Assembly: GCA_030549175.1 (NCBI GenBank)
Contig: JAUKUA010000002.1
Location: forward strand, 1,302,001-1,366,000
Direction: 5' to 3'
Length of the DNA: 64,000 nucleotides
Source: Lasiosphaeris hirsuta
Lineage: Eukaryota > Ascomycota > Sordariomycetes > Sordariales > Lasiosphaeriaceae
The notes beneath the pieces are model-generated. The model was not told where the DNA came from. It did not search any database and saw only the letters and a program-made list of their open reading frames with translations. Shown here piece by piece: positions 58,246-63,009 of this stretch (positions are counted from its first letter, which is position 1; every line of letters starts with the position of its first letter). The translations under genes and the position numbers were made by a program.

Positions 58246-58855
58246 ATGCGTTTCTCTCAGGTTCTTACCTTGACCTCGCTGGCCACCTCGGCCATGGCGC
58301 TTGTCATTCCCGCAAACCAGCCGTATGTAACCCACCTTGTTGTTTGCCTTCAGCAGCTAGTTTCAGGTGGTAACCTCAAGCAAAATTAGGGCTATTGGTG
58401 TTCTGCCTCGTCACGGGGACACAGTCATCCCTGATAAACAAAAGTACGAGAAGCGCCACGGGGAGACGGTGATCCCCGACAAGCAGAAGTACGAGAAGCG
58501 GGCTACAGACACGGTCATTCCCGACAAGCAGAAATACGAGAAGCGTCATGGAGATACGGTCATCCCGGACAAGCAGAAGTATGAGAAGCGAGCCACCGAT
58601 ACCGTGATCCCCGACAAGCAAAAGTATGAAAAGAGGGCCACCGACACCGTCATCCCCGATAAGCAAAAGTATGAGAAGCGTCATGGAGATACCGTGATTC
58701 CCGACAAGCAGAAATACGAGCGATCCACAGATACTGTTATCCCTGATAAGCAAAAGTATGAGAGGCGTCATGGTGACACTGTCATTCCTGACAAGCAGAA
58801 GTACGAGAAGCGTGCTACCGACACCGTCATCCCCGACAAGCAGAAGTATGAGTAA
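58246..58855 (+). CDS. Kex2-processed repeat-peptide precursor (dikaritin-type RiPP precursor candidate)
   Basis: Exons 58246-58322 and 58390-58855 (67-nt intron GTATGT...AATTAG) give 180 residues. The signal peptide MRFSQVLTLTSLATSAMA is followed by a short leader LVIPANQPAIGVLPR. Ten tandem units follow with consensus (HG/AT/ST)-D-TVIPDKQKYE-KR. Lys-Arg or Arg-Arg follows every core except the seventh (KYERSTD, where KR is reduced to R) and the last (ends KYE, stop). The alternating heads HG, AT and ST are the main variation, apart from one Asp-to-Glu (HGE). The DNA copies differ at many third codon positions, so the peptide is under selection. Each core has one Tyr and no Cys. With two UstYa-family genes downstream on the same strand, the best reading is a secreted peptide precursor cut by Kex2 and cyclised or oxidised into a small metabolite. 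A peptide pheromone is the alternative. Confidence 0.85.
58418..58852 (+). repeat. Ten tandem 42-45-bp coding units
   Basis: The minisatellite inside the precursor gene encodes the peptide cores. Unit length is 45 bp, with one 42-bp unit where a Lys codon is lost. Divergence between units is mainly synonymous. Confidence 0.9.
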
Positions 58856-59988
58856 GGTAGCACCGTGCACAAGGTCTCCTCTATGAAAATCCCTGGCTGC
58901 AGCCCATAGATGGAGGATTTCTCATTGCGCGTGTGATGCTTTTGAGCTCAGCCTGGGCCGCGGGTATCGTCACAGCACGGCTGAGTCTCGCTTTTCTTTC
59001 CCTGGTGGTTTTTCTTTTTTGGGGGGGGGGGAGGAGGGGTTATGGGAAGCAAGTTTATAATCTACCTCTATCAGCTAGAATTTGGTAGTTCTGGTGTGGC
59101 CAACCGAGGTGAAGAAGAAAACAAAGAAACTACACTCGTTTACTACAAAACAGTCTTGTGCAGTAAGATACTATGTGACCATATCCGTAAGCCTCTGATA
59201 GAGCCTGTAATTGCCGTAATAAAACCTTGATGCTCTTTTTATCTCTTTTGCCAAGCCTACTAATAAGACACAAGAAGTGTCTTTTGGATTCCCGGATCTT
59301 GTTTTCCTGTGAGCGCGTAACAAGGCACCGTAACGATCATCACTTTGCACCGTAGTACATACATATACCTCCATTTTCTATTTCATATGCCCTCTCATTA
59401 AGCACTGCAGACCCATTGACAGTGTTTTCACGGTTCAGCTTCAAACGCTAAATACATGCCCATCGAGATAGCTGCAGATAATTGGACACACAAGCCAACT
59501 TTTAAGCGGTCTGACTGCCGGTGCCTACCTGCATCGGCGCATTCCTCTTCCCCCCTTTTTTTTCCTTGCGGAATGCGTTCAACCCAGCTTTTAGCTGCAA
59601 TCCGGCAATTTCCAAAGCGTTTGCATGCGCGTACCACACAAAGTGTGCCATATGGCAGGATTGCCTTTCCAGAGTCATCTTTCGGCTCTCCCCGTGGTGC
59701 TCGGAAAAGGAGGCCGAGTGAATCGGTTAAGTCCCGGTTAGGAGACAGCCGCCAAACTCCGAGATGCATCAACACCGAGGGCCAATCATTCGCACTCTTT
59801 CCGATGTAAGCTCGCCCGCCTTCCAACAAGTCAATACCATATCCTTCTTTGTAAGCAGCACTCGATTGCAACACCCCATGAGACAGACATACATCCATTC
59901 TCACTCCCCACGCATCCTAGATCTTCAAACAACAACACAGGCAAATCACGCTTCGCATATCTCGCCCCCTCCCTCTATACACACCACA
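58856..59988. other. Spacer between precursor and first UstYa-like gene
   Basis: 3' UTR of the precursor, a G-rich run near 59022-59033 and the promoter of the next gene. Frames here have no motifs. Confidence 0.45.
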
Positions 59989-61216: not shown

Positions 61217-62244
61217 GCGGGAGAAGACGGCGATGGAGTTGGCATTGGGTGCACTGAGTTAGCATTGATCGATAAGAGAATCTATCTTCATATATCTAGT
61301 CCAAGGTATTGCTGTGACTTGCAGCATAAAGGATTTCTGCTAGGCCAGGGGGCTACCTAAGAGGTTGGCGTGTTGTCCTCTGTGCGTCCGTTTCGCATGC
61401 CAGTGTGTACTGCCCACCTTGCTTGTCTAAATAAACAATGTTTTTTCGGGATAGTACACTGTTGAAAATCTAAATATCACGAATATCAAGCTAGCTTGTT
61501 TGCCACGCCCTCATCCGGTGTCACATCTGCAGATATAATTAAGGAGGGGTTGGTTTGCTTAATTCCGAGTCGAGTGCGCTGTCGTAGTCACAAACTCAGA
61601 TGGCAAGAGATAAATGACTAGCACAAAAGCAGAAAAAAAACCACCTTCCTTGCCCGTTCTGATGTGATCCTGCTCGTATTGGCACGTACATAATCCTACG
61701 GGGTAGGTAAAAAAAACTCTCCACTCGACTCTGTAGGGTGTAGAACCCAATATCGATGCAAGTCGGTACCAAAACTGTCGAATTTGCGGTCCGGCCCCCT
61801 CACTTTGCGCTTTTCCGAGGGATTTCCGTGTGTAACCAACCACACAAGTAAGCACACAAGTAAGATGAAATAGCCACTTTCCGATCGGCAAACGACGCTT
61901 AATAACACAATACCGAGCTGAGCTGAGCCGAGCGGACCCGAGCCGACTCGAGGTGGATCCGCCGCGTCCGGCCTGCCGAGACCGAAAAGGGGCGCGCGGA
62001 TCGACATGCATCGGTTCCGTCTTAGCAGGGCCGAAAACCAAGGAGACGCTCGGAATGTCAGAAGAGCCAGGCTAGAGTTAGGGAAAGGGGTAGCATGAAG
62101 AGTATGTATGCTCTTGTCGTCCGTTGTCTGTGCCATTCTCGTCCCCATTCCTCGTCGTCCAAAAGGTCCACCCACTCCAATATCACTCATCTCTTGTGAC
62201 TCTCTTCACCTGGCTGAAACCACATATTTTTTCTATTGTCATTC
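61217..62244. other. Spacer between the two UstYa-family genes
   Basis: No supported gene. A degenerate GAGCC/GAGCTGA repeat lies at about 61914-61955. The remainder is AT-rich, and the last bases are the leader of the next gene. Confidence 0.45.
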
Positions 62245-63009
62245 ATGTCGTTAAATATGTGGCCACGCAAAATCAGCGCGGCATACGACCGTCTCCGCGG
62301 TGCCGACGGCGACGACGCCGAGACGCAGCCCTTTACGGACGGCGAGGCAGAGAAACAGGACGCCGGCCACCACATGTCCTCCACAGCACCCCGGTCGCGA
62401 AGCTGGATGAACAAGGCGAGGTCAGCCCTGGCGTTCGCCCTTGGACTTGTCTGTGGCTGGATCGTGCTCGTCACAGCCTGGCGCACGACGCTCCACCCCG
62501 TCCCCCGAACAGTACAATACACCACCAAGACGCTTGAGTGCGGCAACACCACTGCCGAGGCCGAAGCCAGCGGATGCTCGTTTGACCTGCTCTCCCACAA
62601 CTGGGTCCCTCCACCGTGTCTCGACCCCCAAACGGAGTCCGAGTACCGCGCATACATCAGCAGCCCCGAGCGGGCCCTCGGCCCATACCCCTACTTCCTC
62701 GACGCCGAGGGCACCAAGCGCGTCGAGTCGGAGCGCGCCTTTGCGTTACTCGCCAATGGTCATCCCGTGCTGGCGGATCAGCACGTGTACACCACGCGCG
62801 AGGAACACCTCGCGCATTGCAAGTTCTTGTTGCGCCGAACGCACCGCGCCGCGCAGCGCAAAGTCCGGCTCAACGACGAGAACGCCGGGTTTTGGCACAC
62901 CGAGCACTGCCTCGAGGAGCTGAGCAATCCGGGCCGTAAGCCGTTGGATGCGCTAAACGAGGGATTCTTTGTGGGGTACTCGCCTTGTACTATCGAGGTA
63001 CCTGTTTGA
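62245..63009 (+). CDS. UstYa-like membrane protein with divergent HxxHC motifs
   Basis: A single-exon ATG at 62245 (MSLNMWPRKISAAYDRL) gives 254 residues. The hydrophilic N-terminus (acidic, about 1-55) is followed by one membrane helix (ALAFALGLVCGWIVLVTAW, about 62-80), so the topology matches the UstYa family. The lumenal part has CSFDLLSHNWVPPPCLD and then the motif pair REEHLAHCKFLLRRTHRA and ENAGFWHTEHCLEELSNP. Both contain HxxHC (HLAHC, HTEHC), although the surrounding text differs from the canonical protein upstream. It ends GYSPCTIEVPV. It may be a second, non-identical oxidase for the same precursor, as in ustiloxin (UstYa plus UstYb). This role is inferred from context. Confidence 0.78.
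   Translation: MSLNMWPRKISAAYDRLRGADGDDAETQPFTDGEAEKQDAGHHMSSTAPRSRSWMNKARSALAFALGLVCGWIVLVTAWRTTLHPVPRTVQYTTKTLECGNTTAEAEASGCSFDLLSHNWVPPPCLDPQTESEYRAYISSPERALGPYPYFLDAEGTKRVESERAFALLANGHPVLADQHVYTTREEHLAHCKFLLRRTHRAAQRKVRLNDENAGFWHTEHCLEELSNPGRKPLDALNEGFFVGYSPCTIEVPV

What the first reader, a model, noticed from the sequence alone, without database searches (positions are those of the whole stretch)
58246..63009. Candidate new dikaritin-type RiPP cluster: ten-core Kex2 precursor plus two UstYa-family proteins
Seen: a signal peptide, ten tandem peptide cores ending KYE-KR, then two single-pass membrane proteins with paired HxxHC motifs, all on the plus strand within 5 kb. Known: fungal dikaritins (ustiloxin, phomopsin, asperipin, cyclochlorotine-like systems) combine a Kex2-processed repeat precursor with UstYa-family oxidases. 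Inferred: the DTVIPDKQKYE core, with its single Tyr, is oxidised or macrocyclised. I know of no described dikaritin with this core, and its basic, proline-containing sequence is unlike the short hydrophobic cores of ustiloxin or phomopsin.
Basis: partly seen in the sequence, partly recalled or inferred. Interest (0 to 1): 0.92.

Follow-up and report, generated by a model that had tools for sequence, protein, structure and literature searches.

The report
Fungal repeat-peptide gene with two oxidases
A fungus carries a small gene group that probably makes a chemically modified peptide: one gene encodes ten copies of the same short peptide, and two neighbouring genes encode membrane proteins of a copper-oxidase type, one of which standard family models miss.

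Summary
At 58246-58855 a spliced gene encodes a 180-aa precursor with ten copies of TVIPDKQKYE. Between copies, synonymous sites are near saturation while the decapeptide never changes. Only 7 of 9 junctions are KR; one is RR, one a lone R. Downstream lie Y1 (59989-61216), a clear UstYa/DUF3328 protein (PF11807, E 1.9e-55), and Y2 (62245-63009), which no Pfam model matches. Y2 aligns remotely with UstYa with both HxxHC motifs in register. In this genome 3 of the 5 other Y2-like loci found lie within 10 kb of a UstYa hit. One homologous precursor was found, in Colletotrichum liriopes. Best reading: a small dikaritin-type RiPP cluster whose single-Tyr core is oxidised in the secretory pathway; product and modification are inferred, not shown. 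Repeat precursor plus UstYa is a known arrangement (1758 of 7878 precursors, PMC7329392). The unusual element is Y2, a conserved partner outside the family model.

The parts
58246..58322 (+). Precursor exon 1: signal peptide (about 18 residues, ending SAMA by eye) and start of the leader
   Evidence: ATG and open frame; hydrophobic N-terminus
58323..58389 (+). Precursor intron, 67 nt (GTATGT...TAG), the likeliest of four in-frame choices
   Evidence: enumeration of GT-AG introns
58390..58855 (+). Precursor exon 2: rest of leader, ten cores, stop codon
   Evidence: translation
58412..58852 (+). Ten cores HGD/HGE/ATD/STD-TVIPDKQKYE; junctions 7 KR, 1 RR, 1 lone R
   Evidence: core coordinates and substitution counts; tandem repeat 58409-58852
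59989..61216 (+). Y1: UstYa/DUF3328-family protein, 324 aa, exons 59989-60295, 60363-60485, 60558-60688, 60746-60845, 60903-61216; one TM segment, HQLHC and HIDHC
   Evidence: gene model; PF11807 E 1.9e-55; 84 relatives at E up to 1e-3
62245..63009 (+). Y2: 254-aa single-exon protein, one TM segment, HLAHC and HTEHC; conserved fungal family without a Pfam model
   Evidence: remote match to UstYa profiles; model pLDDT 81
55422..57351 (-). Ferric-reductase-type gene (two open stretches 55422-56804 and 56869-57351), divergent from the precursor; membership of the cluster uncertain
   Evidence: PF01794, PF08030 and PF08022 matches in 55422-56804; proximity alone not significant

Best explanation
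A small dikaritin-type RiPP cluster. The precursor enters the ER by its signal peptide (read from sequence). Y1 and Y2, each anchored by one N-terminal membrane helix with the HxxHC domain on the luminal side (inferred), act as dicopper, O2-dependent oxidases on the TVIPDKQKYE core (inferred from characterised DUF3328 enzymes). The likeliest change is a crosslink or other oxidation at the single Tyr and/or at a beta-carbon of Val, Ile or Thr (inferred). Kex2-type cleavage after KR/RR and carboxypeptidase trimming then release oxidised HGD/ATD-TVIPDKQKYE 13-mers or shorter forms (inferred). The ten copies raise the dose. Y2 is probably a second enzyme or a partner subunit of Y1, not a bystander (inferred from co-conservation).
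For: Ten-copy secreted repeat precursor under strong purifying selection, pN 0 against pS 0.84. UstYa enzyme 1.1 kb downstream on the same strand; only 0.55% of the genome lies within 5 kb of a PF11807 hit. Homologous precursor in C. liriopes with the Tyr and most of the core kept. Y2-like genes near UstYa hits in 3 of 5 other loci found, one of them in another repeat-precursor locus. In a 1461-strain survey, repeats with DUF3328 neighbours contain Tyr in 65.6% against 38.2% without, and pheromone precursors almost never have such neighbours (PMC7329392, abstract and section 7). DUF3328 enzymes are binuclear copper, O2-dependent (PMC12435403, whole text).
Against: No product, expression or enzyme data. 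Precursor relative found in one other fungus only, 1 of 157 candidates. Lasiosphaeria hispida, whose Y2 is 94% identical, shows neither Y1 nor precursor in the listings, though the lists are limited by length and by clustering at 90%. The core is longer and more charged than the dikaritin cores I recall. No tyrosinase within 500 kb, and no methyltransferase among the flanking reading frames scanned (not every frame was scanned). Y2's link to UstYa rests mainly on the motif.
Confidence: 0.72

Rival explanations
1. The precursor yields linear, unmodified signalling or cell-surface peptides, and the UstYa-type genes beside it act on something else.
For: Most repeat precursors have no DUF3328 neighbour (6120 of 7878, PMC7329392); the core is charged and has one Tyr; Y1 and Y2 are found in genomes for which no precursor relative was listed.
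Against: Close same-strand linkage to Y1 where only 0.55% of the genome lies within 5 kb of a PF11807 hit; the repeat has none of the alpha-pheromone features that I recall (by eye); pheromone genes almost never have DUF3328 neighbours (PMC7329392 abstract).
Confidence: 0.15
2. Y1 alone modifies the core, and Y2 is a neighbour with a different role (copper handling, scaffold, another pathway).
For: Y2 matches no Pfam family at the cut-off; two of the six Y2-like loci found in the genome are far from any PF11807 hit; masking the motif residues drops the UstYa match to probability 20.
Against: Both HxxHC motifs kept in register; pair co-conserved in 5 of 5 testable genomes; recurrent linkage.
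Confidence: 0.25
3. A decaying or silent cluster that no longer makes a product.
For: Junction 7/8 has a single basic residue and 8/9 is RR; no tyrosinase nearby.
Against: All ten decapeptides intact with pN 0; Y1 and Y2 open with both motifs present.
Confidence: 0.04

Closest known systems
Dikaritins: ustiloxin, asperipin-2a, phomopsin, epichloecyclin, victorin (list as in PMC10512285, passages)
   Same: Signal peptide, repeated cores between Kex2-type sites, DUF3328/UstYa gene beside the precursor
   Different: Core TVIPDKQKYE with three variable head residues; a second HxxHC protein that PF11807 does not match; no tyrosinase within 500 kb; product unknown
Kex2-processed repeat proteins (KEPs) with DUF3328 neighbours (PMC7329392, abstract, sections 6 part 1 and 7)
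   Same: Same arrangement, reported for 1758 of 7878 KEPs
   Different: This core is not named in the parts I read; the supplementary lists could not be read
Colletotrichum liriopes ColLi_12312 (P0001)
   Same: Signal peptide, IPAN leader, four cores of the type [D/E]TVIPDKEKYD (one DLVIPDKEKYD) separated by KR
   Different: Four copies, EKYD for QKYE, other heads; gene neighbours could not be read
CctR and other DUF3328 copper enzymes (PMC12435403, whole text)
   Same: N-terminal TM helix, paired HxxHC motifs each on a helix in the models
   Different: CctR hydroxylates a non-ribosomal cyclic peptide; copper, dimer and activity are untested here

Membership tests
Dikaritins | Secreted precursor with repeated cores between Kex2-type sites | tested here: met
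   Ten copies; 7 KR, 1 RR, 1 lone R among 9 junctions; signal peptide by eye
Dikaritins | DUF3328/UstYa enzyme with two HxxHC motifs in the cluster (class-defining according to PMC12048977 section 23) | tested here: met
   Y1, PF11807 E 1.9e-55; motifs
Dikaritins | Older five-gene definition: tyrosinase, methyltransferase, transporter or peptidase (as told in PMC12048977 section 23) | tested here: inconclusive
   No tyrosinase within 500 kb; flanking frames scanned showed no methyltransferase; a Pro-kumamolisin peptidase lies downstream; not every frame scanned. The same section says that functional clusters lacking some of these genes exist
Dikaritins | Oxidised or crosslinked core peptide | not testable with these tools
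   Needs LC-MS and gene removal
UstYa/DUF3328 (PF11807): Y1 | Match over the curated cut-off and paired HxxHC | tested here: met
   188.5 bits against cut-off 25
UstYa/DUF3328 (PF11807): Y2 | Match over the curated cut-off | tested here: not met
   No match for Y2; 9 of 26 relatives match weakly, best E 0.048
UstYa/DUF3328 (PF11807): Y2 | Remote homology with HxxHC motifs in register | tested here: met
   hhalign probability 86 and 92, score 52 against at most 21.7 in 100 shuffles, 31 with motif residues masked; none against the narrow Y1 profile
Binuclear copper oxidases | Two coppers per chain, O2-dependent turnover | not testable with these tools
   Inferred from the motif and PMC12435403
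Alpha-type fungal pheromone precursors | Pheromone-type repeat and no DUF3328 neighbour | tested here: not met
   Y1 starts 1.1 kb downstream; the repeat is unlike the pheromone pattern I recall (by eye, no search)

The most novel reading that the evidence does not exclude
Y2-type proteins are an unrecognised second branch of the fungal dicopper HxxHC enzymes, missed by the Pfam model used in genome surveys. They work as an obligate partner of a UstYa enzyme on the same repeat core, perhaps as a mixed dimer, and the divergent ferric-reductase-type gene 0.9 kb upstream supplies the electrons or Cu(I) that CctR's authors propose must come from an accessory protein.
Probability: 0.25. Interest if true: 0.7.

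Novelty: new variant of a known kind. Interest (0 to 1): 0.45.

Why it matters
Repeat precursors beside UstYa genes are common, but only five dikaritins were counted as reported in the 2022 review of which I saw passages (PMC10512285). This one has a conserved core and few genes, so it is a tractable test of what UstYa enzymes do to a long, charged, single-Tyr peptide. If Y2-type proteins are real partner enzymes, surveys based on PF11807 undercount this chemistry, and the pair offers a direct test of division of labour between two HxxHC proteins and of the proposed electron donor.

Tried and rejected
Chance repeat: rejected (ten copies, pN 0 against pS 0.84). Second precursor in the genome: none found (only other hit E 0.92). 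Core strings in print: 0 papers in the held library of 5.39 million for the strings; supplements could not be read, so cataloguing in a survey's supplement is not excluded. Y2 against the narrow Y1 profile: no match; against diverse UstYa profiles it aligned. Masking the motif His/Cys drops the score from 52 to 31 (probability 20), above 100 column shuffles (best 21.7) and the reversed profile (20.3), so the link is mostly motif-driven. Foldseek against PDB: no significant match for Y2 or for the Y1 relative P0002. Sequence searches of PDB: no DUF3328 structure (one search gave three chance hits to enolases at E 0.42-0.44). Y2 relatives in viral contigs and in bacterial/archaeal genomes: none confirmed. 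Ferric-reductase neighbour: only a lead. My count gives 14 PF01794 loci, 1 of them near a UstYa locus; with 1.02% of the genome within 10 kb of PF11807 hits that has a chance of about 0.13. Mirror comparison of Y1 and Y2 distances: r 0.52 over six full-length pairs, 14 of 720 permutations as good; r 0.83 with a seventh, partial pair: weak support. Zn2Cys6 pattern near the cluster: none in window, L005 or L006 by one regular expression.

Full report
WHAT IS THERE. The window is fungal DNA (spliced genes; 54% GC) at C7:1302001-1366000 of a 44.4-Mb, 14-contig genome. The closest relative listed for Y2 is from Lasiosphaeria hispida, 94% identical, so the organism is probably of that group (inference). 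The precursor gene has a 77-nt first exon with a signal peptide (by eye), a 67-nt intron and a second exon with ten cores. Three other in-frame introns are possible; they alter only the leader.

THE CORES. The ten copies share TVIPDKQKYE exactly; three head residues vary (HGD 4, ATD 4, HGE 1, STD 1). Over all 45 pairs, synonymous differences are near saturation (pS 0.84) and nonsynonymous ones are zero (1095 sites summed over pairs); all 10 variable columns of the 30-nt unit are third positions. The copies are old and selection acts on the peptide. Junctions: 7 KR, 1 RR, 1 lone R; copy 1 follows LPR. The lone R at 7/8 may give some fused product (inference). No second precursor was found in the genome.

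A RELATIVE. A search of 5.8 billion proteins returned one homologue at E up to 1 among 157 candidates: C. liriopes ColLi_12312, 99 aa, with four cores of the type DTVIPDKEKYD between KR sites. IPAN follows the signal peptide in both, so leader and core are alike; I read this as homology. The Tyr and the VIPDKxKY stretch are kept.

Y1. A five-exon gene model of 324 aa with one TM segment and HQLHC/HIDHC; PF11807 E 1.9e-55. In an alignment of 64 sequences the last His and the Cys of the second motif are invariant and the other motif residues are at 90% or more. Residues just before the TM segment carry net +5 in 15 against +2 after it, which suggests a cytosolic N-terminus and a luminal domain, as predicted for CctR (PMC12435403). 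For Y2 the difference is small (+3 against +2).

Y2. A 254-aa single-exon gene. No Pfam family matches at E 0.001; of 26 family members scanned 9 give weak UstYa hits, best E 0.048, the window's own none. Twenty-nine relatives were listed at E up to 1e-3 among 1232 candidates; A1 aligned 25 of them with Y2 (four partial or odd-length ones left out). In A4 (26 sequences: 23 of these relatives, Y2 and two distant paralogues from the genome) C99, C111, W120, C125, H191, C192, H218, H221 and C222 are invariant. P0105 and P0107 were left out of A4; P0105 has Ser in place of C192 and Trp in place of C99, so those two are not invariant in the family. Profile comparison with diverse UstYa sequences puts both HxxHC motifs in register: probability 86 and 92, score 52 against at most 21.7 in 100 column shuffles and 31 with motif His/Cys masked. 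Against the narrow Y1 profile there was no match. The Y2 model (mean pLDDT 81) has a TM helix and a helix at each HxxHC; the model of a Y1 relative, P0002 (mean pLDDT 74), has the same order. I read Y2 as a remote relative of UstYa, the link resting mainly on the metal motif.

THE PAIR TRAVELS TOGETHER. Six named genomes appear in both listings: P. nucicola, Coniochaeta ligniaria, T. harzianum, Ascochyta rabiei, Xylariales sp. AK1849 and Cercospora zeae-maydis. In five the longest listed contig has the same length for Y1 and Y2, which I take as the same contig (T. harzianum rows stand for several contigs, so it is less strict there). A. rabiei is named from different assemblies and cannot be tested. 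P. nucicola locus tags are consecutive; T. harzianum tags differ by four. Other named genomes appear in one list only: for Y2 L. hispida, Chaetomium olivicolor, Cadophora sp., Dothideomycetes sp. NU459, Colletotrichum jinshuiense and Coniochaeta hoffmannii; for close Y1 relatives Trichoderma breve and Cladobotryum mycophilum. The lists show one name per 90% cluster and obey length limits, so absence is weak evidence, but it counts against a fixed unit. Y1 and Y2 distances correlate weakly (r 0.52, 14 of 720 permutations as good).

THE REST OF THE GENOME. PF11807 gives 41 exon-level matches, a lower bound, in 21 loci when merged within 20 kb. Four of 18 hold a repeat precursor by my scan (three or more similar segments ending in KR/RR): this one, L013 (C7), L025 (C10) and L027 (C11). 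Six Y2-like loci were found. Four lie within 10 kb of a PF11807 hit, or 3 of 5 leaving out the window's own (P 1.1e-5 if placed at random; within 5 kb 2 of 5, P 3e-4). The null ignores any general clustering of secondary-metabolite genes. The C11 copy lies in a repeat-precursor locus. The copies on C1 and C10 are not near any PF11807 hit.

NEIGHBOURS. Upstream, divergent from the precursor, is a ferric-reductase-type gene, then a P450 and a P-type cation ATPase. Downstream is a minus-strand stretch of frames without Pfam match, a frame with a Pro-kumamolisin activation domain and a mevalonate diphosphate decarboxylase, a housekeeping gene that probably bounds the cluster (inference). The nearest tyrosinase hit on C7 is more than 500 kb away. 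CctR's authors hypothesise an accessory protein that supplies electrons or Cu(I) (PMC12435403). The reductase next door is a natural candidate, but its proximity is not significant by itself (1 of 14 loci, chance about 0.13).

MECHANISM AND STANDING. Shown here: gene structures, repeats, selection on the core, family of Y1, remote link of Y2, conservation of the pair. Inferred: secretion, copper, oxidation at Tyr or aliphatic beta-carbons, protease trimming, division of labour. DUF3328 enzymes characterised so far are binuclear copper enzymes that need O2 and electrons (PMC12435403, whole text). Repeat precursors with DUF3328 neighbours number 1758 of 7878 in PMC7329392 (section 7), so by gene content the cluster belongs to a known kind. 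Le Marquer et al. (PMC6339444, abstract and sections 10 and 17) name several conserved repeat cores in the sections I read; this one is not among them. The Trichoderma RiPP paper (PMC7099791, abstract and section 10) describes a different precursor. The core strings occur in none of the held papers; supplementary lists could not be read. The variant element is Y2, a conserved partner that the class-defining model does not see. My reading of it as an enzyme is open to test.

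Noticed in passing
L013:7568-7936, L025:1380-2282, L027:2522-3328 (own genome): Three more repeat precursors at UstYa loci, with different cores: EDATQYYD (L013), RHHKGKKTNG (L025), ARQGGKKVTFLPKDY (L027).
   Followed up: partly
L002:1345-1950; L003:1234-1995; G000 C8:6057905-6058228, C1:8707203-8707580, C10:3978001-3978120: Further Y2-like genes or pieces with the CGxSxxEAxxxGC stretch and/or HxxHC motifs; the first, second and third lie near PF11807 hits, the last two do not.
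   Followed up: partly
window 55422-57351 (-): Ferric-reductase-type gene divergent from the precursor, a possible electron or Cu(I) donor for the HxxHC enzymes; proximity alone is not significant.
   Followed up: partly
window 58288-58330 and P0001: The leader just after the signal peptide reads VIPAN here and AIPAN in C. liriopes, an echo of the core's VIPDK; it could be a recognition element or an ancient copy.
   Followed up: no
L005:3352-5214: A frame with a Pro-kumamolisin activation domain 3 kb beyond the window; if it is a tripeptidyl peptidase it could remove the three-residue heads, but C. liriopes heads are longer.
   Followed up: no
window 63278-64000 (-), probably continuing to about L005:2146: Gln-rich minus-strand frames without Pfam match, convergent with Y2.
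   Followed up: no
window 29228-29318: CAG repeat of about 30 units at 97% matches; read on the minus strand it gives a long alanine run in an open frame.
   Followed up: no
window 51965-53599 (-) and 39105-39791 (-): Two cytochrome P450 reading frames; whether the nearer belongs to the cluster is unknown.
   Followed up: no
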